DNA from: Kiritimatiellia bacterium
Lineage (GTDB): Bacteria > Verrucomicrobiota > Kiritimatiellia > RFP12 > UBA1067
NCBI GenBank assembly: GCA_017525225.1
Contig: JAFXTB010000176.1
Span: 1 to 49,566 of the forward strand
Reading direction: 5' to 3'
Length of the DNA stretch: 49,566 nucleotides
Shown: positions 1 to 42,797 of the stretch, piece after piece
Layout of the letters: every line of letters begins with the position of its first letter
How positions within the stretch are numbered: position 1 is the stretch's first letter
Program-made: the position numbers and the translations under genes
The notes under the pieces: generated by a model
Database searches by the model: none
Told to the model about the DNA's origin: nothing
The model's input: only the letters and a program-made list of their open reading frames with translations

Positions 1-54
1 GGATTATAGAATGCAGGCGGACGACAGTGCCGACACTGCGCATAGGAGAAAGAC

Positions 55-174
55 ATGCATCAAGCAACCCGGGCGGGAAATGTGGAAATCGCCAAAGCGA
101 TTTTGCCTATTGACATCTGTTCTCATAGGAGATGCGCCCCGACAAGAAAGTTTATCAATTTCTCCATTGCCTAG
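55..174 (+). CDS. Possible 39-aa small ORF, ankyrin-like start
   Basis: A short open frame begins at an ATG that sits 7 bases after an AGGAG ribosome-binding-site-like sequence (43-47) and ends at TAG 172-174. Its first 17 residues (MHQATRAGNVEIAKAIL) resemble one ankyrin repeat, while the rest has no recognisable pattern. It ends where the -35 box of the next promoter lies. It may be a real small peptide, a decayed remnant, or chance. Only the initiation signal and the weak repeat resemblance support it. Confidence 0.2.
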   Translation: MHQATRAGNVEIAKAILPIDICSHRRCAPTRKFINFSIA

Positions 175-196
175 CGAGGGTGTTATATTGTATAAT
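167..196 (+). promoter_or_regulatory. Sigma70-like promoter of the Tad/Flp operon
   Basis: A -35 box TTGCCT (167-172), an 18-base spacer and a perfect -10 box TATAAT (191-196) lie 44 bases before the first pilin start. The predicted transcript begins near 203. This is the only good promoter I see before the pilus genes, and it probably drives the whole locus. Confidence 0.6.
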
Positions 197-239: not shown

Positions 240-401
240 ATGAACAGAAAAGGCAAACGAGGCACGTCGTTTCTTGAGTATGCGCTTCTTGCGGCGCTCG
301 TTGGAATCGTGGGCGCGGTGGGCGTGATGAAGTACGGCAGCGCCATAAGCGAATTCTTCTCGTCGCTGGCCACCAAGACCTCCGACGTAACCCCGAAGTG
401 A
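240..401 (+). CDS. flp: Flp-type major pilin subunit, copy 1
   Basis: This is a 53-residue Flp prepilin, the subunit polymerised into the Tad pilus. A short basic leader (MNRKGKRG) is followed by TSFLEYALLAAL. The leader Gly, the Glu at mature position 5 and the Tyr at position 6 match the processing motif used by TadV-type peptidases. A single hydrophobic helix follows, with a short polar tail ending TPK. The ATG is preceded by GGGAGG at good spacing. It is the first gene after the 167-196 promoter and lies 59 bases before a second pilin gene. The assignment rests on the complete leader, cleavage and helix signature plus the Tad neighbours. Confidence 0.88.
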   Translation: MNRKGKRGTSFLEYALLAALVGIVGAVGVMKYGSAISEFFSSLATKTSDVTPK

Positions 402-460
402 CGGGGGCCAGGGCATCTTTCACGTGGCCGAAAGGCCGCATAACAAAAAGGAAAAAAGCA

Positions 461-694
461 ATGAGCAAGCAGAGAAAGTTCGGTTCCCGCAAGGGTGCAA
501 CGTTCATCGAGTACGCGCTTCTGGCCGGCCTCGTGGCAATCGTCGTCGCGGCTGCGGCGATGATCTTCGGCGACGACCTGCAGAAGCTCTTCACCTCGAC
601 CGGGAAGCAGACGGAATCCGTCCAGCAGGGCGTTGACAAGGTGAATCTGACCACGACGCTGAACGCCGCGGGTGGCGGCGAGAAGAAGGAATGA
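461..694 (+). CDS. flp: Flp-type pilin subunit, copy 2
   Basis: This 77-residue prepilin has leader MSKQRKFGSRKG followed by ATFIEYALLAGLVA. The pre-cleavage Gly and mature Glu5-Tyr6 are intact. The helix is followed by a longer C-terminal tail rich in Thr, Gly, Lys and Glu (ending GGGEKKE) that copy 1 lacks. I start at 461 rather than the in-frame ATG at 398. The later start has AAGGA upstream and gives a normal Flp leader, while the earlier one would add 21 residues and overlap the stop of copy 1. Two pilins with different tails could be major and minor subunits, or could be used under different conditions. Confidence 0.87.
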   Translation: MSKQRKFGSRKGATFIEYALLAGLVAIVVAAAAMIFGDDLQKLFTSTGKQTESVQQGVDKVNLTTTLNAAGGGEKKE

Positions 695-706
695 TCGGAA
701 CCGATC

Positions 707-892
707 ATGCTTAGGCGCTTTAGGCGGCGCATCGCGAGCGAACGGGCGAGCGTGTATCTCGAGTACGCGCTCGTGACCTCCATCACTCTCGCGGTCGCCG
801 CCGCGGCGTTCAATCCGGAAAGCTGGTTCTTCAAGGGACTGGGGGTGGATTACGCCTTTCGCGAGGTGATGATCAAGCTCCCAATCTTCTGA
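707..892 (+). CDS. Pilin-like (pseudopilin) small protein
   Basis: This 61-residue protein has a very basic start (MLRRFRRRIASER), then ASVYLEYALV and a hydrophobic Ala-rich helix. The Glu-Tyr of the Flp motif is kept, but the residue expected just before cleavage is Ala, not Gly. The mature tail is short, ending KLPIF. Its stop overlaps the tadV start by one base (TGATG), so translation is likely coupled. It is probably a minor pilin or pseudopilin of the Tad system. Its leader resembles those of the large TadE/TadG-like proteins downstream. Confidence 0.7.
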   Translation: MLRRFRRRIASERASVYLEYALVTSITLAVAAAAFNPESWFFKGLGVDYAFREVMIKLPIF

Positions 893-1386
893 TGCCGATC
901 GTCTGGATAGCCCTGCCGTTCATTCTCGCTTTCGCCTGCTACGGCGAGATCAGGGAAAGGAGAATCCCGAACTGGCTCACGCTGGGCGCGATTGTGCTCG
1001 GTCTGGGGGCCGCCGCGATAGAGGGCGAGGTGGATGGGCTTGTGGATTCGGCGCTCGGCCTTGCGATAGCGGGAGGGTTGTTCCTCCCGTTCTGCCTTCT
1101 CGGGGTCGTAGGCGGCGGCGACATGAAGCTCATGGCGGCCGTCGGCGCGATCGTGGGCTGGCCGATGGTGCTTCGGGTCGTGTGCAACACGTGCATCGCG
1201 GGCGGCGCGATCGCGGTGGCGATCATGGCGTGGCACGGCATACTGCTGACGACGCTCGCGAACACGTTCCGCATCATGGTCGGGATGCAGCGGCGTCCGC
1301 AGGGCCTGCGCAATCCGCCCATGGTGCCGTACGCGCTCGCGATCACCATCGGCACGCTCATCGCCGTGTTCGTGCAGGGGTTCTAG
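892..1386 (+). CDS. tadV: Prepilin peptidase TadV/CpaA (A24 family)
   Basis: This 164-residue polytopic membrane protein is a short TadV-type peptidase that would cleave the leaders of the Flp pilins and pseudopilins on the cytoplasmic face of the inner membrane. The A24 landmarks are present: the RRIPNWLT motif (residues 23-30) and the GGGD motif (74-77) holding the second catalytic aspartate, D77. The first catalytic aspartate, normally D-x5-IPN, is replaced by Glu19 (codon GAG). Four or five hydrophobic segments fill the rest, and the length is normal for TadV. The start is coupled to the upstream pilin-like gene. The D-to-E change leaves an acid in place, so activity may be kept but altered. 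Confidence 0.88.
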   Translation: MPIVWIALPFILAFACYGEIRERRIPNWLTLGAIVLGLGAAAIEGEVDGLVDSALGLAIAGGLFLPFCLLGVVGGGDMKLMAAVGAIVGWPMVLRVVCNTCIAGGAIAVAIMAWHGILLTTLANTFRIMVGMQRRPQGLRNPPMVPYALAITIGTLIAVFVQGF

Positions 1387-1447
1387 TCTTACAGGTCTCT
1401 ATCCAGGTCTCTAGGCTTCCGGATTTCCGGACTTCCAGGAGGCAATC
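1387..1447 (+). repeat. Short spacer with imperfect repeats before the large TadE-like gene
   Basis: The spacer holds CAGGTCTCTA twice (with one inserted base between the copies) and TTCCGGA-type units, then AGGAGG (1437-1442) five bases before the TTG start at 1448. I see no promoter or terminator here. The ribosome-binding site is the strongest in the operon and decides the TTG start. Confidence 0.4.
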
Positions 1448-4030
1448 TTGCTTAAATGGCTGACGAGAAACGACGGCGCTCGGATGGCGCGGGCGAAGAG
1501 GCGGATGGCCTCCTCGCGGGCCTCCGTATACGTCGAGTTCGCCATGATCGCCCCTGTCGTGGCGCTCGTGTGCAGCGCGCTCATCGAGATCGTCGGCCTC
1601 TGGGACGCGCAGGTGGTGGCGAACCACGCCGCCTGGACCGTGGGGCGCATCGTGATGGTGCGCGGGTCGGACGGGCTTGCCTTCTCCAACGACCTTGCGA
1701 AGAAGACCAAGACGGGGATCATCAGCGGAAGCGGGATGCCGGAGGAGATCAAGAAGGCCCTCGCGGACATCGATTCCATCGTAGCGGGCGCGGGCAAGTT
1801 CAACGACCGGGCGAACATTGCGACGCTCTTCCTGATGTCGACGTGCGGCATCGGCTACTACGGCTACTCCCCGAGGGCCGCGGCGACCAAGATCTTCGAG
1901 ACGCTCTGCACGGCCGGAGTGAAGGCGCTCACCGAGGGCATACCGGCATGGATCTCGGGGCTGGTGAACAACATAGAGTACCCGTCGTTCATCGGCGGCG
2001 GAGGGTCGGCGATAGCGGAATTCGTGGACGATCTGGTGAAGGGCATCCTGAACAAGATAGTGGATGCGGTCCTCAAGCCGATAGCCAACGCGCTCTCGTC
2101 GCTTCTGATGGATGCGTTCAACAGGATCATGGACGCGATAGACCTGGACGGCCTCTTCGACGGCGACAGCGCGGCGGCGCGGCGCGCCAGGCAGATATAC
2201 GGCGCGGCGGTGCGGATCGTGCGCGCCAAGTCCACGATCGGCAAGGAAGTGGTGACGGTCAAGGACATGGACGACCTCAACGGCTACTTCATCTTCGCCG
2301 AGAAGAACTCCCACAGGGAATTCAGGCATCTCGCCTATCCGCAGGTCGTGGACGCCGGGGCCAAGAGCGACGGCTACTTCGTGAAGGACTACCACGGTTG
2401 GCCGGCGAACGCCCAGGGTCACGCGATGGTGCATGTGGAGGTGAACTGGCCGTACGAATCGGGCTGGCTCTTCCCGATCGTCTCGGCGCGCGCCGACAAG
2501 TCGACCGGATCCCCGCCCGTCGCGACAGGCCACAGCATGGTGTTCCCACAGCCGAACATCGCCAACGACAACCTCTATTCGGAAGGCGCCACGGCCTTCG
2601 ATCCGGGCGAATACACCAACAACACCACGGCCGCCTACCAGGATATCGTCGACGACATGAGGAACTACATGAGGTTCGTGCTGTTCGGCATGAAGTACAG
2701 GATAAGCGACGAGACGCTGACGCTTAAGGACGGCCCGTACCGCGTGATCCCGGCGCAACACTGGAAGTACATCTCGCAGCTCAAGGATCTCTGGCCGTTC
2801 AACGTCAAAGATCGGGACAGCTATCCAAGGGAAGGAGACTACAAGAGGTGCTGGTCCGCAATCACCGACAATAGTTCCCAGGACAGGGTCACCAGAGAGC
2901 TTAAAGGCTACTTCAAGGCGTCGAGCTACCATTCGCGCGACTATTTCTTCTGGGACGGCCAGCACTTCAAGTACAAGATGTCCAGCGGCAATGCCGGGCT
3001 GATGTACTGGTACGCAACCAACCCGAAGTACACGTATGCCGACGACAAGTCCAACCTCTACAACATCCGTTCATCCGCCTCGGCATGGGCATTCGGCCGG
3101 TTTGGCGGCATGGGCGCGGACTATGACGAGTTCAGCAGGCTGTACGGCAGATACAAGAAACAGCTGAAGAAGGCGCTTCCGGACGCCTGCTCAGAGGACC
3201 TGCTGCGCAGCACGATAGGCAAATTCGCCGCCAGGCACAGCATCAACGTCGCTAACATCGTCAAATGGCAGCAGGGCCGCAGCTACGACAAGTGGGTGGA
3301 GATGGACAAGTCCATCCAGATTCTGGCGATGAAGTCCGAAGTCGCCTTCCCCAAGATACTGAGCCTTGTCAGATCGGAGATAAAGGAGGTCGAAGACATC
3401 GTCAACGGCGGAGGCGAATACGAGGGTAACCCTGAAGACCCCGTGATAACGCCGGAAGACGAATCTACGATGGCGGATCCCGATGCCGCCGCCGCGAAGA
3501 CGAGGGAGAAATGGGAGGCCATGAAAAACGCGCTGAAGGCGAAGCTCGCCGAGGTGGACAACGCCGTGGTGGCCCTGAGGAATTCGTGGTCGGCCTACAG
3601 AAACGCCGCCGACGCTTTCACGAGGGACCGCGAGAAGTGCGTGCCCACGTACTTCATCGAGACGTGCTTCAAACTTATAATAGAGAAACAGAGCCTGGAC
3701 ATGTTCAAGGAAGGGAGCTCGTTAGTCCTTCCCGACAGCGTGATGGTGTACAACGTCTACGACAAGACCCAGGAGATGCTCGGCAAGGTGGACGACTACC
3801 ACACGAAGCTGGATGATGCATACCAGAGGGAGCTGGAATACGGCTTGCTCATGGGACTCCAGAGCGCAGGAAAAGCGCAGCGCGAGGGCAAGTCGATCGA
3901 CGAGGCGGTGGATTCCGCCGGCGATCCCTCCGACGACAATCCCGGATCGCTCACGCCCGGCTCGGACAAGGACGCGATAATCAACAACGACCATCAGGAG
4001 TTCTCTGGCGGCAAATGGGGGTGGAAATGA
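1448..4030 (+). CDS. Very large TadE-like pseudopilin/tip protein (860 aa)
   Basis: The N terminus is TadE-like: basic leader, RMASSRASVYVEFAM, one hydrophobic helix, then a soluble region of more than 800 residues. Typical TadE proteins are under 200 residues. Residues about 175-235 hold amphipathic helical segments. The middle is rich in aromatic and charged residues, and residues about 640-760 include an acidic low-complexity linker (EDPVITPEDE region) and a predicted coiled coil. The TTG start is chosen because AGGAGG lies five bases upstream. The alternative ATG at 1484 has no such signal. The stop is in an ATGA overlap with the next gene. It could cap the pilus or act as an adhesin. I recognise no enzymatic motif in the large domain. 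Confidence 0.72.
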   Translation: MLKWLTRNDGARMARAKRRMASSRASVYVEFAMIAPVVALVCSALIEIVGLWDAQVVANHAAWTVGRIVMVRGSDGLAFSNDLAKKTKTGIISGSGMPEEIKKALADIDSIVAGAGKFNDRANIATLFLMSTCGIGYYGYSPRAAATKIFETLCTAGVKALTEGIPAWISGLVNNIEYPSFIGGGGSAIAEFVDDLVKGILNKIVDAVLKPIANALSSLLMDAFNRIMDAIDLDGLFDGDSAAARRARQIYGAAVRIVRAKSTIGKEVVTVKDMDDLNGYFIFAEKNSHREFRHLAYPQVVDAGAKSDGYFVKDYHGWPANAQGHAMVHVEVNWPYESGWLFPIVSARADKSTGSPPVATGHSMVFPQPNIANDNLYSEGATAFDPGEYTNNTTAAYQDIVDDMRNYMRFVLFGMKYRISDETLTLKDGPYRVIPAQHWKYISQLKDLWPFNVKDRDSYPREGDYKRCWSAITDNSSQDRVTRELKGYFKASSYHSRDYFFWDGQHFKYKMSSGNAGLMYWYATNPKYTYADDKSNLYNIRSSASAWAFGRFGGMGADYDEFSRLYGRYKKQLKKALPDACSEDLLRSTIGKFAARHSINVANIVKWQQGRSYDKWVEMDKSIQILAMKSEVAFPKILSLVRSEIKEVEDIVNGGGEYEGNPEDPVITPEDESTMADPDAAAAKTREKWEAMKNALKAKLAEVDNAVVALRNSWSAYRNAADAFTRDREKCVPTYFIETCFKLIIEKQSLDMFKEGSSLVLPDSVMVYNVYDKTQEMLGKVDDYHTKLDDAYQRELEYGLLMGLQSAGKAQREGKSIDEAVDSAGDPSDDNPGSLTPGSDKDAIINNDHQEFSGGKWGWK

Positions 4031-5220
4031 CGGGGAAGGAAGAACGTGGAACGGGGGCGCTGATGCTGGCGAGGGTCTCCTCCGAGCGCGGCAGCGTGGG
4101 CGTCGTGATGGCGTTCGTCATATTCGTGGTGCTGGGGATGCTCACGATGACGTGGAACACGGCGCAGCTGTCGAAGGCGAAGATGCGCCTGCAGAACGCG
4201 GCGGACTCGGCCGCGCTCGCCCACGCCGTGTGGCAGGCGCGCGGGATGAACGCGGTGCAGAACATCAACGACGAGATGTACGAGGCGCTTTCGCTATCGG
4301 TCAAGCTCAGGAAGATCTCGGCGGTGCTGGAGGGTATCGCGATAGGGTTCGACGCGGCGTCGAACATCCCTGTCGTGGGGCCGATATTCAAGGGGCTCGC
4401 CGTCGTGTTCCACCTGTTCGGCGTCCTCTCCGGCGCCCCGGCGGGCTGGATGGCGGCCCGAATATGCGACAAGTTCCTCAAGTACATACAGCAGGCGTAT
4501 GTGTACGGTTCGGCTCTCTTCGGGCTGTGGAACGCCCAGCAGCTCGCCGCGCAGAACGAGGCGGATCCGCTCGCGAAGCTTGAGTCCACGAGTTCGGGGG
4601 GGACGGACTCCTGGCATTTCGGGATATACACGCTGGGGCTTTCCTGGCCGCTGAAGGACGCCTTCATGCTGCCGCTTGGAAAATCCGGCAAATGCGACGA
4701 CTCGCCATGGACGGCGCAGAAGCTCGACATCTACGACGGCTCCACCCAGCCGTGGAAGACGATATACAACATCGCCGGCACCCCTGAAGGATGGAATATA
4801 AAGCCGTACGTCTCCAAGCGCGGCGACAAAGAGGGGATCAAGGTGGAGAAGAAGACGAAGGACGGCAAGGAAGTCACCGTGGTCGACGAGCAGGGGGTGC
4901 TTCCCGGACCCACCATGTGGATCGCGTTCAAGCTGGGCAAGAACATCCAGACGCTTCCCCTCGACGGGTTCTGGAACGCGGACGACAAGAACCGAGGCTC
5001 GCATTCGCTGCCCATGTTCGCGGTTGCGGCGGCGCAATGCATCACGGGCGACGTGGTGCCGCACTCGGAAGGGACCAAGGACGGCGTTACGAACCAGAGG
5101 CCGGAAGGCTTCGGCGCCGGGGCGACGGCGAAGCTGGTGCCGGTGTCGCAGGTGTTCTACGCAATGAGCAAGGCAGGGAAGGTGGCAGGTACCGTCGTGG
5201 ATGCGATAGTGTACCATTGA
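4027..5220 (+). CDS. TadG-like pilus assembly protein
   Basis: This 397-residue protein has an N-terminal helix in the context SERGSVGVVMAFVIFVVLGM, followed by the signature NTAQLSKAKMRLQNAADSAALA of the TadE/G-like (Tad domain) family. The family anchors in the inner membrane and reaches into the periplasm to support Flp assembly. Residues about 105-180 are hydrophobic and amphipathic. The C-terminal 200 residues are soluble with no known motif. I start at the ATG that forms an ATGA overlap with the previous stop, preceded by GGGGGTGG. An in-frame ATG at 4015 would add four residues. The glutamate typical of the TadE motif is absent here, as is usual for TadG. Confidence 0.72.
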   Translation: MTGKEERGTGALMLARVSSERGSVGVVMAFVIFVVLGMLTMTWNTAQLSKAKMRLQNAADSAALAHAVWQARGMNAVQNINDEMYEALSLSVKLRKISAVLEGIAIGFDAASNIPVVGPIFKGLAVVFHLFGVLSGAPAGWMAARICDKFLKYIQQAYVYGSALFGLWNAQQLAAQNEADPLAKLESTSSGGTDSWHFGIYTLGLSWPLKDAFMLPLGKSGKCDDSPWTAQKLDIYDGSTQPWKTIYNIAGTPEGWNIKPYVSKRGDKEGIKVEKKTKDGKEVTVVDEQGVLPGPTMWIAFKLGKNIQTLPLDGFWNADDKNRGSHSLPMFAVAAAQCITGDVVPHSEGTKDGVTNQRPEGFGAGATAKLVPVSQVFYAMSKAGKVAGTVVDAIVYH

Positions 5221-5235
5221 GAAGGTGTGAAAGAG

Positions 5236-6039
5236 ATGGATGAAGAAGCAAGGATGCTGGGACGCCTGAAGAGGCGGCTTGCGAGCGCGCGGGCGAGCGT
5301 GATGCTCGAGTTCGCCTTCGTGGCGCCGCTTGTCGCGGTCGTCGCCATATTCGCCGCGGACTTCACGCGCATCCTCCGCACCGAGCAGCAGCTGGAGATC
5401 GCCAACCGCCTCGCCGCCGACGTGGAGGCGCACATGGCGGACTACTACGCCAAGGGCGAATCCCCCGGCTTGCAGGCGAAGAACATCTGCAAGCGCTACC
5501 TGGTGAAGGTGGCGCATGTCGCCACGGAAACGGGGAAGGTCTACATGAAGGGCGGGTGCGGGGTTATAAAGAATCCCATCTCCGTGGCGATCGCATGGGT
5601 GGCGGATTTCCTGGACGGTTCGATGTTCGACGATGGAAGCCTCTTCCTGAAGATCCTGGGCAAGCTGCTCGGCGGCATCATGAACTTCGTGACGTTCGGG
5701 ACGGTGAAATACCTCACCGACGTCGTCCCCCACGACCACGAGGTGTGGGTCTCGACGGCGGCCTACATCCCCACGATCCTGCCGGCCGGGTCGTACGGGT
5801 GGCTGACGCTGAGCGAGCATGAGGACAAGGGGATCGGCGTCTGCCAGTTCGCGCCGGACCTGGAGGCGTCGAGCGCCGCCGCGACGGCGTGGAGCCTCAA
5901 GCTCAACGCGAAGAAGCGCCATCGCGTCTACTGCTACATGCCTGTGGTGGACGCCGTCCCGGTGGCGCCTGTGACCTACGTGAGGAAGTTCAAGAGCTGG
6001 TGCGCGAAGCAGAAGTGGGCGAAAGGACTCATCGATTGA
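5236..6039 (+). CDS. TadE-like pseudopilin
   Basis: This 267-residue protein has the TadE pattern: a basic leader, RLASARASVMLEFAFVAP, a single hydrophobic helix and a periplasmic domain. A second hydrophobic stretch (region around NPISVAIAWVADFL and LFLKILGKLLGGIM) resembles the amphipathic segments of the 860-aa and TadG-like proteins, so the three probably share an architecture. The start is uncertain. The ATG at 5236 has AAGG ten bases upstream, GTG at 5227 and ATG at 5254 are alternatives, and all keep the helix. The stop overlaps the next gene's TTG start (TTGA). Confidence 0.72.
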   Translation: MDEEARMLGRLKRRLASARASVMLEFAFVAPLVAVVAIFAADFTRILRTEQQLEIANRLAADVEAHMADYYAKGESPGLQAKNICKRYLVKVAHVATETGKVYMKGGCGVIKNPISVAIAWVADFLDGSMFDDGSLFLKILGKLLGGIMNFVTFGTVKYLTDVVPHDHEVWVSTAAYIPTILPAGSYGWLTLSEHEDKGIGVCQFAPDLEASSAAATAWSLKLNAKKRHRVYCYMPVVDAVPVAPVTYVRKFKSWCAKQKWAKGLID

Positions 6040-6935
6040 GAAGGAAGCTCTATAGAACGGCGTTTTCGCTTGCGGTCGTCATAGGCGTGGTCCTGGTGGC
6101 GCGCTGGACGATCCGCACGGCGGTGACGCGCGCGTACCGCGCCGAAGGCGCGTTCAGCGCCGCGGAGGTGCCGGTCGCGCCGGCGCCCAAGGTGTGGTCG
6201 CTCGCGCAGATCGTGCCGAAGGAGCTTCACGTCAACATCGCGGGGCTGGCGGTCGGCCGCCATGCCGAGCGGCTCGGCATGCCGTACGCGCTGGCGGTGG
6301 ACGTGGCGGACGAGAAGGCGAGGAGCGCGGGCTGGGAGCGGCTCGACAACGAGAACGCGATCACGCTCAAGAACCTGTCCGGCATGGAACGGATATACAG
6401 GACGCCTGGGGGATCGATAGTGCTCCGCGAGGTGAGGGCGGTCGTCGGCAACGACTCCATCATGGAGGATTTCACGATGCCGGTGGAGATGGTCCAGGAC
6501 TGCAGCGAGCAGACGACGCCCGATGTACTGGCGAGGCGGAGCGCGGCGAAGGTGAAGGCGCTGATGCCGCCCGTGCTGCGCGACGTGATCACGGGCAGTC
6601 CCATGCTGACGGAGCTGATCGAGCGCGGCGGCGGCGCGGCGCTGATCGTCAGGTGCGCATCCGACATGCCGGCGGACGCAACGACGCGCGCGATCGAGTC
6701 GGCGGCGAGGAAGGCCGGGTGGGCGGAGACCCGCTACGTGTCGCCGCCGGGCGTGAAGATCCCGGCCGCCGCGTCCGGGGCCGCGGGCGCCCCGCCTGCG
6801 TCCTGGGCGAAGAGGAACCTGTCGTTCCACTTCGAGGTCGTGCCGCGCAGCAACGGTGGCGGCTGCGACGTGAACTACCGCTTTACAGACGACGAATCAT
6901 TCATACCAACGAAAGGAAAAGCAGATGAAGACTGA
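6036..6935 (+). CDS. Unknown membrane-anchored Tad-locus protein
   Basis: I do not recognise this 299-residue protein. A TTG start overlaps the upstream stop (TTGA) and has GAAAGGA nine bases before it. It gives the N terminus MRRKLYRTAFSLAVVIGVVLVARW, a single membrane anchor. The rest should be periplasmic, with two alpha/beta-looking halves and a Pro/Ala-rich linker near residue 245. The C-terminal end overlaps cpaB by 11 bases. Sitting between TadE-like genes and cpaB suggests a structural or assembly role in the pilus machine, possibly replacing periplasmic components such as RcpB that are missing here. Function is not supported by any motif I can name. Confidence 0.6.
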   Translation: MRRKLYRTAFSLAVVIGVVLVARWTIRTAVTRAYRAEGAFSAAEVPVAPAPKVWSLAQIVPKELHVNIAGLAVGRHAERLGMPYALAVDVADEKARSAGWERLDNENAITLKNLSGMERIYRTPGGSIVLREVRAVVGNDSIMEDFTMPVEMVQDCSEQTTPDVLARRSAAKVKALMPPVLRDVITGSPMLTELIERGGGAALIVRCASDMPADATTRAIESAARKAGWAETRYVSPPGVKIPAAASGAAGAPPASWAKRNLSFHFEVVPRSNGGGCDVNYRFTDDESFIPTKGKADED

Positions 6936-7731
6936 CAACCATACCAAGATCGCAGTGGTGGCTGCGGTGCTGGTGGGCCTGTTCGCGGTGGTGGCCGTGA
7001 ACAAGTACATCAAGAACCGCACGTCCGTGGCGCCGACGCCCAAGGCGTCGATCCTCGTGGCGACGATGGAGATCAAGGAAGGCTCCGAGATCGGGGAGGA
7101 GATGCTCGGCTCCGCCGAGATACCCTTCGACTCGCTCTCGAACATGCACATCGCCCTGCCGGCCAAGAACGACCCCGGATACCAGAAGGCGTTCTCCGAC
7201 GTGCTCGAGAAGATAGTCAAGCGCAAGACCAAGCGCCTCGTGGCGGCCAAGACGCCCATCTTCTGGATCGACATCGAGACGGAGCAGAAGAAGCCGTTCG
7301 CCGACCTCATCGCCGACGGCCACCGCGCCGTGACGGTGCCGGTCGATTCCGTCAGCTCCGTATGCGGGTTCATCAGGCCGGGCAGCCGCATCGACGTGGT
7401 GCTCACCGCCACCGAGGAGAAACTCGGCCTCGTCACAGGCCAGGCGGCGAAGGAGACCGGTTCGCGGATCGTCTCGAGCGTCATCCTGCAGAACGTGCCA
7501 GTGATCGCGACCGACCGCGAATACGACCTGCAGAGCGAATCCTCCGGCTACGGCACCATGACCCTCTCGCTGCCTACGAAGGCCGCGATCATGATGGTGC
7601 AGGCCCGCACGATGGGCCAGATAACCTATCTGCTGCGCAACGTGCGCGACACGAAGACGGAGCAGGACCGTACCAACGTGACGGTTGCTCCGGGCGGCTC
7701 GTTCGGCGAGACGGTGAGGTCCTTCCAATGA
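6925..7731 (+). CDS. cpaB: Flp pilus assembly protein CpaB/RcpC
   Basis: This 268-residue protein has an N-terminal membrane anchor (about residues 9-26) and the CpaB/RcpC layout. A SAF-type beta-clip domain begins at the SILVATMEIKEGSEI region, and the second part contains the conserved RAVTVPVDSVSSVCGFIRPGSRIDVVLT block typical of CpaB. CpaB is periplasmic and works with the secretin in Tad pilus export. AAAGGA lies upstream of the ATG. The gene overlaps its upstream neighbour and is separated from the secretin gene by the repeat array at 7739-7890. Assignment to the family is confident. Confidence 0.87.
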   Translation: MKTDNHTKIAVVAAVLVGLFAVVAVNKYIKNRTSVAPTPKASILVATMEIKEGSEIGEEMLGSAEIPFDSLSNMHIALPAKNDPGYQKAFSDVLEKIVKRKTKRLVAAKTPIFWIDIETEQKKPFADLIADGHRAVTVPVDSVSSVCGFIRPGSRIDVVLTATEEKLGLVTGQAAKETGSRIVSSVILQNVPVIATDREYDLQSESSGYGTMTLSLPTKAAIMMVQARTMGQITYLLRNVRDTKTEQDRTNVTVAPGGSFGETVRSFQ

Positions 7732-7738
7732 ATTAAAT

Positions 7739-7890
7739 CGGGCAAAGCCCTTTAAATCGGGCAAAGCCCTTTAAATCGGCCTTCGGCCTTTAAAGATTTA
7801 AAGCCGCGAAGCGGCGATTTAAAGCAGAGCGATTTAAAGCAGAGCGATTTAAAGCGGAGCGATTTAAAGCGGAGCGATTTAAGGCAAAGC
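7739..7890. repeat. Composite intergenic array of GC mini-hairpins joined by TTTAAA spacers
   Basis: TTTAAA-containing words alternate with short GC-rich inverted repeats. GGGCAAAGCCC occurs at 7740-7750 and 7759-7769, GGCCTTCGGCC at 7778-7788 and GCCGCGAAGCGGC at 7803-7815. Five 15-bp units follow (7816-7890) of the form GATTTAAAGCrrAGC, where the spacer word is GCAGAGC, GCGGAGC or GCAAAGC. It fills most of the gap between cpaB and the secretin gene and ends before the secretin ribosome-binding site. No protein on either strand is credible: one minus-strand frame merely repeats Ser-Ala-Leu-Asn-Arg because the unit length is a multiple of three. Confidence 0.85.
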
Positions 7891-7913
7891 GATAAAGTGA
7901 AAGGAAAACGGAG

Positions 7914-9518: not shown

Positions 9519-9532
9519 ACGGAGGCGCAGCG

Positions 9533-11158
<1,626 letters not shown>

Positions 11159-11162
11159 GAAC

Positions 11163-11894
11163 ATGCCGGTTGATCTGATAGTCGCGTTCGTCGCGATAGC
11201 CATCCTGTCCATACTGGCGGGCGTGGCGGTGAACGGGCTTCTGAAAGCCTCGCGGGACGATGTCGCGTCCGGCGACGACGTGATGGCGCGCGCCGCGCAC
11301 GTGGGCGACAGCCGGATGCCCGAGTTCATCGCCGCAAGGATGCGCGCGCGCCGCGCCATGAAGGTGCGCGCCGAACTGCCGGACGCGCTGGACATGGTCT
11401 CCAACTCGCTCTCCGCCGGCCTGACGCTGCCGCAGGCGCTCCTGAGGAACATCGACCACTTCCCGCCGCTCGTCGCGGAGGAGTTCGCGCGGATACTCTA
11501 CGACACGCGCCTCGGCTACTCCATCGGCGGCGCCTTCGACAACTTCGGCAGCCGCCTGCCCATAGCGGACGTGCAGATGGTGGTGATAGCCTCCAAGATC
11601 GGCGTCGCCCACGGCGGCAACCTGGCGGAGAGCTACCGCATGCTCTCTACCCTGCTGAGGGACAACATGGCCTTCGAGGACGAGCTGAGGGCGATGACCA
11701 CGGAAGGGCGCATGCAGGCCCTGGTCATGAGCCTGCTGCCGCTGGTGATGATCGTGCTGCTGGGCCTCGTGAAGCGCGACCTCGTGTCGCCGCTGTTCAC
11801 CACGATCGCGGGATTGTGCACTCTCGCGGTTCTGCTGACGATGCAGGGCCTCGCATATCTCTGGATACGGAAGATCGTGGACATAAAGGTGTGA
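11163..11894 (+). CDS. tadB: Tad inner-membrane platform protein TadB
   Basis: This 243-residue protein has an N-terminal membrane helix (about residues 4-22) and the T2SSF/GspF-like platform domain, including the diagnostic ELPDALDMVSNSLSAGLTLPQAL segment (about 75-97). Two C-terminal membrane helices follow. TadB and TadC form the inner-membrane platform that couples the TadA ATPase to pilin polymerisation. The ATG follows the tadA stop closely with AGGA just upstream. The same frame is open further upstream inside tadA, but there the sequence is a basic nonsense shadow, so I start at MPVDLIV. It is shorter than many TadB proteins because little sequence precedes the platform domain. Confidence 0.86.
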   Translation: MPVDLIVAFVAIAILSILAGVAVNGLLKASRDDVASGDDVMARAAHVGDSRMPEFIAARMRARRAMKVRAELPDALDMVSNSLSAGLTLPQALLRNIDHFPPLVAEEFARILYDTRLGYSIGGAFDNFGSRLPIADVQMVVIASKIGVAHGGNLAESYRMLSTLLRDNMAFEDELRAMTTEGRMQALVMSLLPLVMIVLLGLVKRDLVSPLFTTIAGLCTLAVLLTMQGLAYLWIRKIVDIKV

Positions 11895-11898
11895 CGCA

Positions 11899-12792
11899 AT
11901 GAAGATCGACATTCTCATAGCAATCGCCTGTTCGGCCATAGCCGCGATGATGCTCGCGTTCATCATCGTCAGGGGGCTGCTGCGCTCCACCTCCGCCGAC
12001 TCCTCCGGGGACAGGAAGGCGGGCGGCTCCTCGCTGCGGTCCATCCTGGCGCCGATCGCGCTCTTCGTGGAGCACCGGCGCGGGATGGATCCCGAGCTCA
12101 ACCGCACGCTCGAGCGCCTCGAGAAGCTGGTGGTGCAGTCCGGCGGCAGGTTCCTGGAAGGCGCCACCGCCGCCGAGATATTCGCCGCGAGGTTCGTCCT
12201 GCCGATCGTGGCGCTCGCGGTCATAGTGCCGCTGGGCCTGATGCTGAAGCTTTCCGGCGGCCTGGTGCTCGTCGGCGCGGCGTTCTTCGCGGTGCTGCTC
12301 TACGCCTATCCCGAGAACGGCCTCAAGTCGGCGGCGGCCGAGCGCACGCGCCAGTTCACGCGCGACCTCCCCGGCTCGCTGGACGTGATGCGGCTCGTCG
12401 CGCAGTCCGGCGGCGACCTTCTCTCCGCGATACGTTCCGTCATTGAGGTGACGCCCAAGGGACCCGTGCGCGACGAGCTGTCGCGCGTGGTGGCCGAGAC
12501 CACCATCGGCACATCGCTCGTGGCGGCGCTCAACAATGTGGCCGAGCGGGTGGGGACGAACGAGGCCAACGCCGTGTTCTCCACGCTCGCGCAGTCGCTG
12601 GAGATGGGTACGTCCGTGGCGGAGAACCTCCAGAGCGCGGCGCAGCTCATCCGCCACGCCGCCCGCGTCAGGGCCCAGGCCCAGGCGCAGAAGGCCGTGG
12701 TGAACATGTCGTTCCCGCTGCTGCTGCTGATCCTTCCGGGGATTTTCATAGTTCTGTTCGCCCCGCTCGTCATACAATTCTTCAATAGGTGA
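11899..12792 (+). CDS. tadC: Tad inner-membrane platform protein TadC
   Basis: This 297-residue partner of TadB has an N-terminal membrane helix, a pair of helices around residues 100-125, a T2SSF domain (TRQFTRDLPGSLDVMRLVAQSGGDL, with AQSLEMGTSVAENLQSAA further on) and a final membrane helix (LLLLILPGIFIVLFAPLVIQFF). The order tadA-tadB-tadC is that of Tad loci generally. The start lies four bases after the tadB stop. The stop TGA overlaps a GTG of the next frame, which indicates the operon continues. Confidence 0.86.
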   Translation: MKIDILIAIACSAIAAMMLAFIIVRGLLRSTSADSSGDRKAGGSSLRSILAPIALFVEHRRGMDPELNRTLERLEKLVVQSGGRFLEGATAAEIFAARFVLPIVALAVIVPLGLMLKLSGGLVLVGAAFFAVLLYAYPENGLKSAAAERTRQFTRDLPGSLDVMRLVAQSGGDLLSAIRSVIEVTPKGPVRDELSRVVAETTIGTSLVAALNNVAERVGTNEANAVFSTLAQSLEMGTSVAENLQSAAQLIRHAARVRAQAQAQKAVVNMSFPLLLLILPGIFIVLFAPLVIQFFNR

Positions 12793-12797
12793 AAGTC

Positions 12798-13886
12798 ATG
12801 CAGAAGAACAGTTTCAAGCCCGTTCTGGTGCCATCCGTCTATTCGATGCGCGTGGTGCTGTGGTCGCTCGTGCTCGTGGCGCTCTTCGGCGCCCTGATGG
12901 GCGGGTACTGCGCCTGGGGTGCGCTGGTCAAGGCGCGCGAAAGGCTGGGCGAGCCGGTACAGAAGTCGGTGTCCACGCCGATGTTCACCGTAAGGCTGCC
13001 GCTCGGGTGGGAGGCGTACAGCACGAATGTGAACAAGCTTGCCGTGTTCCGCCAAAAGGGGCAGGACATCCCGATCATCTTCCTGCTTGCGGAAAGGGAT
13101 CCGGGATTCCCGTACCACGCCCTCGACATGAACCCGTCCATCCTCTTCCACCATGTGGAGGAGGACATCCTCGCGGAGCATCTCTCCGGCCTGCCGGACG
13201 AACTGCCCACGAAGGTGTACGGCACGGAGCTGCTGACGGTGCGTCCCGGGGTGGTCGCGGCGCGGATGCTCTTCGACGTCGGCATCTACGACGGCGAGGC
13301 GATGCTGTTCTATTCCGGCGACGTACGCTACGTGCTGTGGGCGCTATGGAAGGACGAGGACACCAGGATGGCCGCCGAGATACACAGGTTCTTCCGCCAC
13401 CTGTTCGAGGATTTCGACATCCCGGAGCTGCGAGAGTCCATCGACCGCCCCGTGGTGCATTCCGGCCGGTTCACGGCTGAGATCAACGCCGCCACGCACC
13501 TGAAGGTGGAACGCGAGATGGCCCTGTGGCGGCTCTTTGCCGCCCGTGCCGAGACGGAGCCGGGGACGGCGCTTCTGCCCGCCCTGCAGCACTACCGCGA
13601 GGCGCTGCGCCTGCTTTCGTCGATCAGACAGGAACGCATCGCCCTGGTCTCGGACGACTTCAAGCTCTACCAGCGCCTGCTTGAAAAGCGGCGCAAGGAC
13701 GTGGATGAATGGTTCGTGGTGCTGGACAAGGCCGTGGCGATGGGCGACTGGACGCGCGCGCGCCGCCAGGCGAAGTGGATAATGTCGCACGCCACGCTGA
13801 CGGGCGAGCGCGTCGACGTCCGCCGAGCCGCGGAGATCCTCGCCACCAAAATCCCGGCGGAGGACGCGGGGGGCACGAAGAAGTAG
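12798..13886 (+). CDS. Unknown single-pass membrane protein of the extended Tad operon
   Basis: I do not recognise this 362-residue protein. After a short cytoplasmic start, a strong membrane helix spans about residues 18-42 (VVLWSLVLVALFGALMGGYCAW). The remaining 320 residues should be periplasmic: a mixed domain to about residue 200 (TPMFTVRLPLGWEAYSTN, a fold often seen in stress- or surface-associated lipoprotein-like domains), then a helical region with many charged residues. The ATG at 12798 has AGGTGA five bases upstream. A GTG at 12789 overlapping the tadC stop is possible. Its place directly after tadC implies a pilus-related role. Confidence 0.55.
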   Translation: MQKNSFKPVLVPSVYSMRVVLWSLVLVALFGALMGGYCAWGALVKARERLGEPVQKSVSTPMFTVRLPLGWEAYSTNVNKLAVFRQKGQDIPIIFLLAERDPGFPYHALDMNPSILFHHVEEDILAEHLSGLPDELPTKVYGTELLTVRPGVVAARMLFDVGIYDGEAMLFYSGDVRYVLWALWKDEDTRMAAEIHRFFRHLFEDFDIPELRESIDRPVVHSGRFTAEINAATHLKVEREMALWRLFAARAETEPGTALLPALQHYREALRLLSSIRQERIALVSDDFKLYQRLLEKRRKDVDEWFVVLDKAVAMGDWTRARRQAKWIMSHATLTGERVDVRRAAEILATKIPAEDAGGTKK

Positions 13887-13912
13887 CCGCAAAGGAAAGG
13901 TCATCGCAGACC

Positions 13913-15715
13913 ATGGAAAAACTCAGGATATTCTCCGCAGACGGAGACACGGTGCTGGAACGCGACCTCACGGAGGTCGCAAAGCCCCTGATGCTGCTCG
14001 CCGGCGAAAAGCCGCAGCTGGTGGAGACGGTGCCTTCAGGCGCGGAGGTGCTGGGCGCCCTCGTCAGGGACGAGGACGGCTGGACGCTCGCCTCGGCGAA
14101 GGACGATATGCCCGTATCGTCTGGCCCCAAGACGGGCACCGATTTCCATCTCACCGCAGGCATCGCGTGCGCCCTCGGGCCGTGGGTGTTCCGGATCGAG
14201 CGCGAAGGCGCGACCACGGGCACCGTGCTGCTCTGGCGCGTGGGCTCCAGCGCGATCGCGGCCGACCCGCTGATCCAGGGCAGGAACCAGGTGGCCTCGG
14301 CCAAGGATGGCGCGTACGCGATCAACCCCGCCGTCTCGGGCGCCGAGCTGTGCTCGATCTTCCCGACTGCCGACGGCGTGGACGTGGTCGCCGCCAACGA
14401 TGCGCAGCGGCTCTCTGTGCCGTTCGCCACGCTTTTCGCGGTGGGGGCGTTCCAGGGCATGGCGCTCCGCGCGGCGGACGCTACGGCCGCCGTGAAGAGC
14501 GGCCACCCCTTCGGCTGGCCTGCCCGCCGGACGCGCCAGGGCCTGATGGCGATGCTGCTGCTGGCGGCGCTCATCGGCCTCGGCGCACTCGCGCTGGTGA
14601 AGGAGAAGAATATCGTGGACGCGGCGATCGCCTCGAAGATCGGCCCCGTGCTGGTCGATCGCACGCTCGCCGGGGCCGACGCGGTCAACACGGACGAGGA
14701 CGCCCTCGTCTACCAGAATTCCTTCTACCGCTCCCTGCCGCTCATCCTCAAGGCCGAGCGCTCGCCCATCACGCGCGACCTCATCCAGCGCGGCCGGCAG
14801 ATATCCGGGCATGTGGGCGGCGCCAAGGCGGCCGAGAACGAGGCGGCCATAAAGGACATAATCCGGTTCCTGAAGGCGCTGGACGAGATACAGGCCGCCG
14901 CGCAGAGGGGCGACTGGCCCGCGTTGAAGGATACGCTCGCCACCGCCGACAAGGCCATGTTCACCCGATGCGATGCCGACAAGTTCTACAATGATGCGCA
15001 GGTGATCGTGGACTTCGTGACTGTCGCCCTGCCGAAGTTCTTCGTCTCTGCGGTGGAAGTCGGCGCGGGCGGGTTCTCGGATGCCGAAAAGCGCATGAGA
15101 TCCTTCTTCGAAAGCCTGAAGGACAACGTGTTCATGTCCGGCGAGATAGTCCGCCGTGAACGCGACAGCGCCCAGATGCGCTGGCGGGCCCTGGCCGGCT
15201 ACGTGCCGATACGCGAGAAGTTCCTCGCCGGCTCGGACGAGACGGGGCTCGGCGCAGCCCTGCAGGATGCCTGGGCGAACCTCGTGGACGCGTTCGACCC
15301 CGAGGACGAGACGTTCGCCCCGATGATCAAGCATGAGCGCGAACGGCTCGTGGAGGCGATACTCAAGCGCGTGGACACGGCGGATTCGCTGGAGCTCATC
15401 CGCCTGTGCGCGCTCGGCGAGGCGGTGGGCGTGGACAATTCGCGCCTCGCGCAGTGGCGCACCCGTGCCGCCGCCACGCGCAAGGAGCTTGCGCGCAAGT
15501 ACCGCGAGATGTATTCCGACTACCGCATGCGCTCGGCGGTCGCGCCCGATGCGCCGGATACGCTCGCCGTGCTCGACAAGATGATCGCGCTCGGGCTGGA
15601 GGACAACCATTTCCACCAGTGGGCCTTGCGCGAGAAGGTGCGCGTGCAGACCAAGAAGGACGAGTCGAAGAACGGCAAGGACGGCGGACAGAGCAAGAAA
15701 GAAGGTTCGAAATGA
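13913..15715 (+). CDS. Unknown membrane protein with beta-rich cytoplasmic N terminus
   Basis: This 600-residue protein has two beta-rich segments (about 1-100 and 105-200) that could be degenerate FHA-like domains, one membrane helix (about 215-235, LMAMLLLAALIGLGALALV) and a long helical C-terminal domain ending in a Lys-rich tail (KKDESKNGKDGGQSKKEGSK). The layout of FHA-like, membrane and extracytoplasmic domains resembles inner-membrane ring proteins of the YscD type, but sequence support is weak. The ATG has AAAGGAAAGG 12 bases upstream; the same frame is open further upstream only as a shadow of the previous gene. The stop is in an ATGA overlap with the next gene. It may pair with the FHA-like TadA. 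Confidence 0.55.
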   Translation: MEKLRIFSADGDTVLERDLTEVAKPLMLLAGEKPQLVETVPSGAEVLGALVRDEDGWTLASAKDDMPVSSGPKTGTDFHLTAGIACALGPWVFRIEREGATTGTVLLWRVGSSAIAADPLIQGRNQVASAKDGAYAINPAVSGAELCSIFPTADGVDVVAANDAQRLSVPFATLFAVGAFQGMALRAADATAAVKSGHPFGWPARRTRQGLMAMLLLAALIGLGALALVKEKNIVDAAIASKIGPVLVDRTLAGADAVNTDEDALVYQNSFYRSLPLILKAERSPITRDLIQRGRQISGHVGGAKAAENEAAIKDIIRFLKALDEIQAAAQRGDWPALKDTLATADKAMFTRCDADKFYNDAQVIVDFVTVALPKFFVSAVEVGAGGFSDAEKRMRSFFESLKDNVFMSGEIVRRERDSAQMRWRALAGYVPIREKFLAGSDETGLGAALQDAWANLVDAFDPEDETFAPMIKHERERLVEAILKRVDTADSLELIRLCALGEAVGVDNSRLAQWRTRAAATRKELARKYREMYSDYRMRSAVAPDAPDTLAVLDKMIALGLEDNHFHQWALREKVRVQTKKDESKNGKDGGQSKKEGSK

Positions 15716-16656
15716 TCAAGAAGATCAACACGCTACTGGTCGTGGCGTTCGTCGCCATGCTGGCCCTGAAGGGGGTCAAGGTGCTCAAGGACTCCCGCGC
15801 GGCGGCCGCGCAGTCGCATAAGGCCGCGACCTCCGAGCGACAGGACGCCTCCCAGCTCGCCCCGTGCGTCTGCTACGGGTACTGGGCCGGGTATTCCATA
15901 GAGAATCCGATATCGAACAGGAATGGCGTCCTGCTGGACATGATGCGCGCCATATTCCCCAATGCCACCTTCCGGAACGTCCATGGCAACGTGGACGAGT
16001 TCGCGAAGATACTGCGCGAGGATCCCAAGGCGGTGGTGGTGGGATTCGGCGAACATCCATCGTTGAAGGGCATGAAGATGGCGCCAACCCCGCTGATGCA
16101 TTGTCCGCTCGTGCTGATGACGCTCCGCACGAATCCATGGCGATACAAGGGGCCGACGTCGCTCGACGGGCTGAGGATAGTCGCCAACGAGGCGTTCCTC
16201 GACTACAAGGTCATCAGGGATCTGCGCGACCGGATCGGAAACGACAAGAAGCGCCTGCGCTTCCTGCCGTCGTCCATCACAAAGGTCGAGCTGGCCGAAC
16301 TCGTGGAGAAGGGCGAAGCGGACGCATTCGTGATGGCCGGGATGAAGAACGACCAGGGCGAGCTCCTGGACGGATTTACGTCCATACAGCTAATCAGGGA
16401 GTTCCGCAGATCCGAGGCGATCGGCAACGACGGCACTTTCCTGTACGTGTCCGGCGTGGACGCCGATCTCGCCAGGCGGACGATCGACGAATTCGAGAAG
16501 GGCATGAGGCGCATCGACGCAAGCGGCGAACTCCGCCGCATATTCGAATACTATGGCATATCGTACGAGCCACCCTCCCAACCTTCCCAACCCTCCCAAC
16601 CTTCACAACCTTCCCAACCCTCACAACCTTCCCAACCCTCTTCAGATGGTAAATGA
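15712..16656 (+). CDS. Periplasmic-binding-protein-like protein with Pro-Ser-Gln tail
   Basis: This 314-residue protein has a signal anchor (about residues 4-22) and then a fold consistent with family 3 solute-binding proteins: NGVLLDMMRAIFPNATF near the start of lobe 1, TSLDGLRIVAN at the lobe crossover, and ELVEKGEADAFVM and LARRTIDEFEKGMRRI later. The C terminus is a tandem (Pro-Ser-Gln)7 tail (16573-16638) ending SSDGK. It overlaps both neighbours by ATGA. No transporter genes are adjacent, so it is more likely a ligand sensor or structural partner of the pilus machine than an importer component. The family call is from sequence pattern only. Confidence 0.55.
   Translation: MIKKINTLLVVAFVAMLALKGVKVLKDSRAAAAQSHKAATSERQDASQLAPCVCYGYWAGYSIENPISNRNGVLLDMMRAIFPNATFRNVHGNVDEFAKILREDPKAVVVGFGEHPSLKGMKMAPTPLMHCPLVLMTLRTNPWRYKGPTSLDGLRIVANEAFLDYKVIRDLRDRIGNDKKRLRFLPSSITKVELAELVEKGEADAFVMAGMKNDQGELLDGFTSIQLIREFRRSEAIGNDGTFLYVSGVDADLARRTIDEFEKGMRRIDASGELRRIFEYYGISYEPPSQPSQPSQPSQPSQPSQPSQPSSDGK
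16573..16638 (+). repeat. 9-bp tandem repeat encoding Pro-Ser-Gln
   Basis: Seven imperfect 9-bp copies of TCC CAA CCY encode Ser-Gln-Pro at the C terminus of the binding-protein-like gene. The third base of the Pro and Ser codons varies (CCT/CCC, TCC/TCA), so the array has diverged at silent sites while keeping the peptide. A 9-bp unit allows copy-number change without a frameshift. Confidence 0.9.
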
Positions 16657-17183
16657 AAATGGCGGAACAGGAGGATCTATTTGCGGCAATGCTGGGGTCG
16701 GAACGGCCGCCAGTGGAGCGAATGTCTCCGAGGTCGCGCCCGAATGCCGATGACGACCGTGTATCGGATGCGCTTGAGATCCAGAAGCTTGTCGTAGAGG
16801 AGATGGCGGCCGACAAGGCTGCGCTGGAGGTCGAGAAGGCCGAGCTGGTATCCGCCAAGGCCGAGTTGGAGACCGCCAAGGCTGAGTTGGAGACCGCCAA
16901 GGCCGCGCTCGAATCCGCGAACGCGTCGCTGGCGGCGGAAAACGCCTCTCTGGCGGCGGAGAAGGCCGCTCTTTCTTCCGCTAACGCGTCGCTGGCGGCG
17001 GAGAAGGCCGCGCTGGAGACCGAGCGGGGTGAACTCCAGAAGCGCGTCGGCGAACTTGAGCAGGATGCGGCCAGGCTTGCCGCCGAGAACGGCGAGCTTG
17101 AGGAGAAGCTGGCGCGGATGGGACGGTCGCTCGCGGCTGCCCGCCGCGCGGCCGCCGGGAAAGTGCTGGAGTCACGGCATTGA
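16653..17183 (+). CDS. Coiled-coil protein closing the Tad operon
   Basis: This 176-residue protein has about 50 residues of Pro/Arg/Asp-rich N terminus, then an uninterrupted heptad region (about 45-165) built from near-identical Ala/Leu/Glu/Lys units such as AELETAK and SLAAEKAAL. The DNA shows matching 21-bp repeats near 16861-16902. No membrane segment or signal peptide is visible, so it is probably a cytoplasmic rod or scaffold. It starts in an ATGA overlap with the previous gene (a second ATG lies six bases on). It is the last gene coupled to the pilus operon, as the next gene encodes a secreted protein with a different style. Function unknown. Confidence 0.6.
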   Translation: MKMAEQEDLFAAMLGSERPPVERMSPRSRPNADDDRVSDALEIQKLVVEEMAADKAALEVEKAELVSAKAELETAKAELETAKAALESANASLAAENASLAAEKAALSSANASLAAEKAALETERGELQKRVGELEQDAARLAAENGELEEKLARMGRSLAAARRAAAGKVLESRH

Positions 17184-25887: not shown

Positions 25888-25947
25888 ATGGGCGTTTTGC
25901 GACAATCGTCGCTATCGGCGGTGGACGAAGTGAAGGGAACTCAGGTC

Positions 25948-41487: not shown

Positions 41488-41496
41488 AGAACGGAA

Positions 41497-42786: not shown

Positions 42787-42797
42787 GGCCTTCCGCC

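What the first reader, a model, noticed from the sequence alone, without database searches (positions are those of the whole stretch)
240..17183. Tad pilus operon with missing standard parts and at least five unrecognised partners
The core genes (flp, tadV, cpaB, secretin, tadA, tadB, tadC) are present in one direction. TadZ/CpaE, TadD and RcpB are not seen. In their place are an unknown 299-aa anchored protein before cpaB and four genes after tadC (362, 600, 314 and 176 aa) joined by short gaps or ATGA overlaps. This may be a lineage-specific form of the Tad machine with its own sensing or positioning module.
Basis: partly seen in the sequence, partly recalled or inferred. Interest (0 to 1): 0.7.

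Follow-up and report, generated by a model that had tools for sequence, protein, structure and literature searches.

The report
Distinct Tad pilus machine with extra scaffold
This gut-bacterium operon builds a Tad-type (type IVc) pilus of a distinct, inherited subtype whose motor is accompanied by membrane proteins not described for any Tad machine, one of them resembling the inner-ring protein of type III secretion systems; it gives a concrete place to ask how a Tad pilus works without its usual TadZ and TadD parts.

Summary
The operon at 240-17183 is real and the core of the finding holds, with corrections. No tadZ, tadD or recognisable rcpB lies in it or just upstream of intact relatives. 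Four of the five 'unrecognised partners' are inherited parts. x362 and x600 follow tadC in 19 of 19 loci, spread over two classes of the phylum. x299 precedes cpaB in both classes. x314 follows x600 in 12 of 12 loci, in the window's order only. The fifth (x176) occurs only in this genome. x299 is an enlarged relative of a small protein that precedes cpaB in the ordinary Tad loci of the order. x600 carries two degenerate FHA domains (SctD/YscD-like), one membrane helix and a helical periplasmic part. x362 is a membrane-anchored PsbP-like plus helical protein. x314 is a membrane-anchored SBP_bac_3-like protein. TadA trees put this type apart (98/95) from the ordinary Tad (100/100) that the same genome also carries. 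The ordinary locus lacks tadZ and tadD too, and Myxococcus Kil already shows a Tad machine without TadD and RcpB. Verdict: a new variant of a known kind. The scaffold role is inferred.

The parts
167..196 (+). promoter-like site TTGCCT-18-TATAAT, 43 bp before flp1
   Evidence: the number of such sites in the region is no more than chance, so only the position is suggestive
240..401 (+). flp1, 53-aa Flp pilin
   Evidence: sequence; PF04964 E 4.5e-5, below cut-off; conserved in relatives
461..694 (+). flp2, 77-aa Flp pilin
   Evidence: PF04964 E 7.8e-9, above cut-off
707..892 (+). 61-aa pilin-like protein (minor pilin?)
   Evidence: no Pfam match; conserved at the same place in relatives incl. 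the sister class
892..1386 (+). cpaA/tadV prepilin peptidase
   Evidence: PF01478 E 1.8e-19
1484..4030 (+). large TadE-type minor pilin, 848 aa
   Evidence: PF07811 E 0.005, below cut-off, residues 16-50; conserved position
4027..5220 (+). TadG-type minor pilin, 397 aa
   Evidence: PF13400 E 2.8e-9, above cut-off
5254..6039 (+). TadE-type minor pilin, 261 aa
   Evidence: PF07811 E 6e-4, just below cut-off
6036..6935 (+). x299: one TM helix plus two helix-GW-strand domains; enlarged relative of the small gene before cpaB in ordinary Tad loci
   Evidence: no family; sister-class homologues hhalign E 4.2e-11; link to the short pre-cpaB family E 6.2e-7, controls 0.07 or worse
6925..7731 (+). cpaB/rcpC alignment-complex protein
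   Evidence: PF16976 E 2.8e-21
7914..9518 (+). secretin (RcpA/CpaC type)
   Evidence: PF00263 E 4e-22
9533..11158 (+). tadA/cpaF motor ATPase with a degenerate N-terminal FHA-type domain
   Evidence: PF00437 E 3.5e-58; TIGR03819 326.7 bits, below its cut-off of 373; FHA signature lost
11163..11894 (+). tadB platform protein
   Evidence: PF00482 E 2.8e-12
11899..12792 (+). tadC platform protein
   Evidence: PF00482 E 2.2e-15
12798..13886 (+). x362: TM helix (about 14-50), PsbP/Mog1-like domain (52-211), C-terminal helical domain
   Evidence: AF2 pLDDT 80; PsbP 2xb3 Z 13.1, rmsd 3.0, 144 residues; next to tadC in 19 of 19 loci
13913..15715 (+). x600: two FHA-type domains (1-99, 103-194), TM helix (about 205-241), C-terminal helical TPR-like part
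   Evidence: AF2 pLDDT 80; FHA Z up to 9.6, T3SS PrgH FHA Z 8.0; sister-class orthologue FHA E 1.1e-14 and YscD cytoplasmic domain E 6.7e-11, both above cut-off
15712..16656 (+). x314: TM anchor plus SBP_bac_3-like periplasmic domain; found in the window's order only
   Evidence: orthologue L099 PF00497 E 1.4e-4, below cut-off; hhalign to true SBP_bac_3 proteins E 1.1e-5, controls 0.26 or worse
16653..17183 (+). x176: coiled-coil ORF, not a conserved part of the system
   Evidence: absent from every related locus

Best explanation
The locus encodes a Tad (type IVc) pilus machine of a distinct subtype inherited in at least two classes of the phylum that contains Kiritimatiellota. Flp pilins and three TadE/TadG minor pilins are matured by the linked prepilin peptidase, polymerised by TadA on TadB/TadC, aligned by CpaB and exported through the linked secretin (known Tad biology, inferred here from homology). 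The extra conserved proteins form the inner-membrane and periplasmic scaffold. x600 has its two FHA-type domains in the cytosol beside TadA, which itself carries a degenerate FHA-type domain, then crosses the membrane once and extends a helical TPR-like arm into the periplasm, much as SctD frames the motor of a type III system. x362 (PsbP-like plus helical) and x299 (two small domains, always before cpaB) sit in the periplasm around CpaB and the secretin. In this order an SBP-like protein, x314, has been added. The most likely role is to anchor the motor and to join the inner-membrane platform to CpaB/secretin, taking over work done by TadZ and TadD elsewhere. Shown: gene content, conservation, one TadA clade, domain architecture (predicted models). 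Inferred: topology, FHA-FHA contact with TadA, replacement of TadZ/TadD, pilus function.
For: Linkage: x362 and x600 directly follow tadC in 14 loci of the window's order and 5 of the sister class. No copy of x362 was found elsewhere in 288 genomes of the class (12 hits, all at such loci). One TadA clade for both classes, 98/95, apart from the ordinary Tad, 100/100. Architecture of x600; sister-class orthologues match FHA and Yop-YscD_cpl above cut-off. x362 fold. x299. x314. Hydrophobic segments: one near the N-terminus of x299, x362 and x314; in x600 the strongest lies at about 211. No ParA-type gene in the operon or next to it in four relatives. Purifying selection between the window and G027: dN/dS about 0.2 for x362 and x600, about 0.15 and 0.36 for x314 and x299. 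Published in situ model: CpaE/TadZ rings the motor CpaF at the inner membrane in Caulobacter (PMC13170226), the place where the x600 FHA domains would lie.
Against: No interaction, localisation or pilus has been shown. pTM of the x600 model is 0.46, so the relation between its domains is unknown. TadZ could lie elsewhere in the genome: PF16968 was not a sensitive test, although PF13614, which rings in all 14 controls, finds only three places in this draft genome, one of them the Wzc-like protein of the window. TadD was not searched genome-wide. The ordinary Tad of the order lacks tadZ and tadD without having x362/x600 beside it, so the loss does not by itself require these partners.
Confidence: 0.5

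Rival explanations
1. A contact-responsive Tad weapon or adhesin like the Myxococcus Kil system: the FHA proteins and the SBP-like x314 form a signalling relay that triggers pilus assembly on contact or on sensing a ligand, and the large minor pilins form an interchangeable tip.
For: Kil also has an FHA-fused motor ATPase and several FHA proteins and lacks TadD and RcpB (PMC8460266); Tad tips are built of TadE/F/G-type minor pilins with variable domains (PMC12075869); here tadE1 is the least conserved gene (49.8% identity to G027 against 93% for tadA).
Against: The TadA FHA-type domain of this order has lost the G-R, S-x-x-H and N-G signature that the ordinary TadA of the same genome keeps, and x600 of this order shows no such signature either. 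Kil is reported to lack TadG, which is present here. No kinase gene lies in the operon.
Confidence: 0.2
2. A Tad-type secretion or uptake machine rather than a surface pilus: x314 binds a solute or peptide in the periplasm and the pseudopilus moves cargo.
For: SBP_bac_3-like x314 in 12 of 12 loci of the order; own secretin and peptidase in the operon.
Against: x314 is absent from the sister-class loci, so it cannot be essential to the basic machine; Flp pilins of ordinary length are present.
Confidence: 0.1
3. The four extra genes are accessory and dispensable, travelling with the operon without being part of the machine.
For: The ordinary Tad locus of the same genome has no x362, x600 or x314 beside it.
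Against: Co-inheritance of x362 and x600 in the same order in two classes, purifying selection, and absence of x362 away from Tad loci in 288 genomes.
Confidence: 0.12

Closest known systems
Canonical Tad/Flp (type IVc) pilus, e.g. Aggregatibacter flp-tad-rcp, Caulobacter cpa
   Same: Flp pilins, A24 peptidase, TadE/TadG minor pilins, CpaB, secretin, TadA, TadB, TadC in one operon
   Different: no tadZ, tadD or recognisable rcpB; x299, x362, x600 (and x314) instead
Shorter Tad locus of the same order (C60 in the own genome)
   Same: flp, TadE/G, small gene before cpaB related to x299, cpaB, FHA-TadA, TadB; no tadZ or tadD
   Different: no peptidase, secretin, x362, x600 or x314 at the locus; TadA keeps the phosphothreonine-binding FHA signature; separate TadA clade
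Myxococcus Kil system
   Same: FHA-fused motor ATPase, several FHA proteins, no TadD or RcpB (PMC8460266)
   Different: TadG present here, a single operon, no needleless T3SS looked for; sequence comparison not possible with the tools left
SctD/YscD/PrgH inner-ring protein of type III secretion
   Same: cytoplasmic FHA-type domain(s), one TM helix, large periplasmic part
   Different: periplasmic part of x600 is predicted all-helical, TPR-like; partners are Tad, not T3SS, genes
CpaF class III (FHA-IDR-CpaF)
   Same: N-terminal FHA domain on the motor (PMC12019362)
   Different: here the FHA signature residues are lost

Membership tests
Tad/type IVc pilus | Flp pilin and prepilin peptidase | tested here: met
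   PF04964 above cut-off for flp2; PF01478 E 1.8e-19
Tad/type IVc pilus | TadA-type motor and two separate TadB/TadC platform proteins | tested here: met
   PF00437 and two PF00482 proteins above cut-off; TIGR03819 is best but below its cut-off
Tad/type IVc pilus | CpaB/RcpC and secretin | tested here: met
   PF16976 and PF00263 above cut-off
Tad/type IVc pilus | TadE/F/G minor pilins | tested here: met
   PF13400 above cut-off; two PF07811 matches below cut-off but in place
Tad/type IVc pilus | TadZ/CpaE in the locus (usual, not universal: Kil is published as a single-ATPase system) | tested here: not met
   only Walker A in the operon is TadA's; none upstream in four relatives; Kil precedent
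Tad/type IVc pilus | TadZ/CpaE elsewhere in the genome | tested here: inconclusive
   PF16968 absent but its Caulobacter control failed; three PF13614 places only
Tad/type IVc pilus | TadD pilotin and RcpB | tested here: inconclusive
   no lipobox TPR gene found in the operon; not searched genome-wide, and no sensitive RcpB model was used
Kil system | FHA domain fused to the motor | tested here: met
   TadA N-terminus aligns with FHA-TadA; sister-class orthologue PF00498 E 4.3e-7
Kil system | lacks TadG; two gene clusters | tested here: not met
   TadG-type gene 4027-5220; one operon
Kil system | common ancestry with Kil proteins | not testable with these tools
   no Myxococcus sequence could be reached after the caps
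SctD/YscD | cytoplasmic FHA-type (Yop-YscD_cpl) domain and one TM helix | tested here: met
   PF16697 above cut-off in the orthologue L128 only, none in the window protein; fold match Z 7-9
SctD/YscD | T3SS gene neighbours | tested here: not met
   neighbours are Tad genes in every locus read
SctD/YscD | periplasmic ring-building domains | tested here: inconclusive
   periplasmic part predicted helical, but it was not folded alone and fold lists do not exclude a family
SBP_bac_3 | profile match above cut-off | tested here: inconclusive
   best member 22.1 bits against 26.4; profile-profile E 1.1e-5
PsbP/Mog1 fold | fold match | tested here: met
   x362 residues 53-209, Z 13.1, rmsd 3.0, 144 aligned; no sequence match

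The most novel reading that the evidence does not exclude
x600 is a Tad counterpart of SctD: a double-FHA single-pass protein that rings the TadA motor through FHA-FHA contacts and reaches CpaB and the secretin with a TPR-like arm, so that this Tad lineage replaced both TadZ and TadD with one envelope-spanning scaffold.
Probability: 0.25. Interest if true: 0.75.

Novelty: new variant of a known kind. Interest (0 to 1): 0.5.

Why it matters
Current Tad models rest mostly on proteobacterial machines with TadZ and TadD. A second, long-kept design with other envelope partners would show which parts of the machine are replaceable, and it hints that FHA-type inner-membrane scaffolds recur in pilus and secretion machines. 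It also gives a place and an architecture to four families that are otherwise 'hypothetical' in gut and rumen Kiritimatiellota.

Tried and rejected
x176 as a partner: rejected, no relative at any related locus. Sequence search of x299, x362 and x600 against solved structures: nothing useful; the hits of x600 to the designed 'Cake' proteins cover 35 residues only. PF16968 as a TadZ test: its Caulobacter control failed, so the empty answer says nothing. tblastn with one TadZ protein in the own genome: empty, without a control. Defence families (PADLOC): none. x362 and x600 on plasmids: no match. Weak far hits: the x600 hit in G192 lies in no Tad locus, the x314 hit in G238 is on a 3.7-kb contig without other hits, and the x314-like hits in G124 are ordinary SBP_bac_3 proteins. 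The reading that all five extra genes are unknown inventions of this locus: rejected for x299, which has a relative in the ordinary Tad loci. Literature: no paper in the open-access library links 'Tad pilus' with Kiritimatiellota.

Full report
Observation. The window is contig C74 (from base 1) of a 4.2-Mb draft genome. Genome contigs that carry the closest relatives are titled Kiritimatiellae/Kiritimatiellaeota, Lentisphaerae or uncultured-bacterium MAGs, several of them 'RUG' isolates, which I read as rumen MAGs. From 240 to 17183 all genes run on the + strand with overlaps or short gaps. Profiles confirm Flp (PF04964), prepilin peptidase (PF01478), RcpC/CpaB (PF16976), secretin (PF00263), TadA (PF00437) and two T2SSF platform proteins, TadB and TadC.

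Conservation. A search with x600 in 60 relatives, then with its alignment in the class and the phylum, found the same operon in a minority of genomes of two families of one order (7 of 60, 14 of 288 and 7 of 388 genomes with a match; some of these are remnants or weak hits). x362 gave 12 of 288 genomes, each at such a locus. The gene order flp-flp-p61-cpaA-tadE-tadG-tadE-x299-cpaB-secretin-tadA-tadB-tadC-x362-x600-x314 is complete in G057, G038 and G266 and on two contigs in G027. Fourteen distinct loci of the order show tadC-x362-x600, and x314 follows in all twelve that are long enough. x176 is in none of the relatives.

Sister class. A weak hit in another class of the phylum (G333) led to a Tad locus with the same order and diverged x299, x362 and x600. 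A search of 198 genomes of that class found four more, including one on a 3.2-Mb single contig. There the operon ends with x600. The conserved subtype therefore consists of the Tad core plus x299, x362 and x600; x314 is an addition of the window's order.

Two Tad types. The own genome has a second cpaB on C60. That locus, of a type common in the order (53 of 60 genomes have a cpaB of either type), holds flp, TadE/TadG genes, a small gene before cpaB, cpaB, FHA-TadA and TadB, with no secretin, peptidase, tadZ or tadD beside it. A tree of the TadA core puts the window type of both classes in one clade (98/95) and the ordinary type in another (100/100). The sister-class rows are not a clade of their own, and the two outgroup rows have long branches, so vertical descent and transfer between the classes are not told apart.

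The partners. x299: one TM helix and two small domains with a conserved GW. The sister-class form is clearly homologous (hhalign E 4.2e-11). Its C-terminal domain is related to the small gene before cpaB of the ordinary loci (E 6.2e-7; unrelated controls 0.07 or worse). x362: AlphaFold2 mean pLDDT 80, TM helix, PsbP/Mog1-like domain (Foldseek E 2.7e-6; Z 13.1 to 2xb3) and a C-terminal helical domain. x600: mean pLDDT 80, pTM 0.46; residues 1-99 match FHA domains (Z up to 9.6, rmsd 3.0, 88 residues), residues 103-194 match the FHA-type domain of a Salmonella type III protein (4g2s, which I take to be PrgH; Z 8.0), followed by a TM helix and an all-helical part. Its sister-class orthologue L128 matches FHA (E 1.1e-14) and the YscD cytoplasmic domain (E 6.7e-11), both above cut-off, which supports the assignment by sequence. 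x314: one orthologue reaches PF00497 E 1.4e-4 (below cut-off), and the family aligns with true SBP_bac_3 proteins at E 1.1e-5.

FHA signature. The ordinary TadA proteins of the order keep G-R, S-x-x-H and N-G in nearly all of ten sequences. The window type reads G-S or G-T, A-x-x-Q and D-G in all sequences of the order. x600 of the order shows no signature either. A phosphothreonine switch on these domains is therefore less likely than a structural use, as in SctD; this is inference.

Missing parts. No tadZ, tadD or recognisable rcpB lies in the operon or upstream of it in G027, G038, G401 and G479. Genome-wide absence of TadZ is not shown: PF16968 missed its Caulobacter control, and PF13614 finds three places, one of them the Wzc-like protein at about 37956-40433. 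The lack of TadD and RcpB has a published precedent, the Kil system of Myxococcus, whose motor is also FHA-fused (PMC8460266); FHA-fused CpaF is a known class (PMC12019362).

Mechanism. The Tad core is assigned by homology. The scaffold role of x600, x362 and x299 rests on linkage, predicted topology and folds. In Caulobacter, CpaE (TadZ) is modelled as a ring around the motor at the membrane (PMC13170226); the FHA domains of x600 would occupy that place. Contact with TadA, CpaB and the secretin is not shown.

Verdict. Real, conserved and so far undescribed as far as the open-access library shows, but a variant of a known machine.

Noticed in passing
window 1-141: A 141-bp sequence shared (99-100%) with the ends of six other contigs of the genome: the edge of a dispersed repeat at which the assembly breaks, so the true upstream neighbour of flp1 is unknown in this genome.
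   Followed up: partly
L054 7733-8323 (G035 C185): A 196-aa ORF fuses a piece of x600 to the C-terminal part of x314, with no other operon gene on the fetched stretch: a decayed remnant of the operon.
   Followed up: partly
window 16653-17183: x176, a low-complexity coiled coil whose start overlaps x314 by 4 bp, seen only in this genome; in G027 a 911-aa ORF begins at the same place (L055 9012-11747).
   Followed up: partly
window 18534-18569: A perfect TTGACA-16-TATAAT site and an inverted repeat (18551-18569) just before a 1432-aa ORF (18594-22892) that matches no Pfam family.
   Followed up: no
window 25888-28644: 918-aa ORF with a passenger-associated-transport repeat (PF12951), autotransporter-like.
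   Followed up: no
window 37956-44081: Wzz/Wzc-like protein, GDP-mannose dehydratase-like gene and a histidine kinase downstream of the pilus operon: probably a polysaccharide cluster.
   Followed up: no
L051 and L066 (G054 C16): The two Tad types lie next to each other on one contig in this genome.
   Followed up: partly
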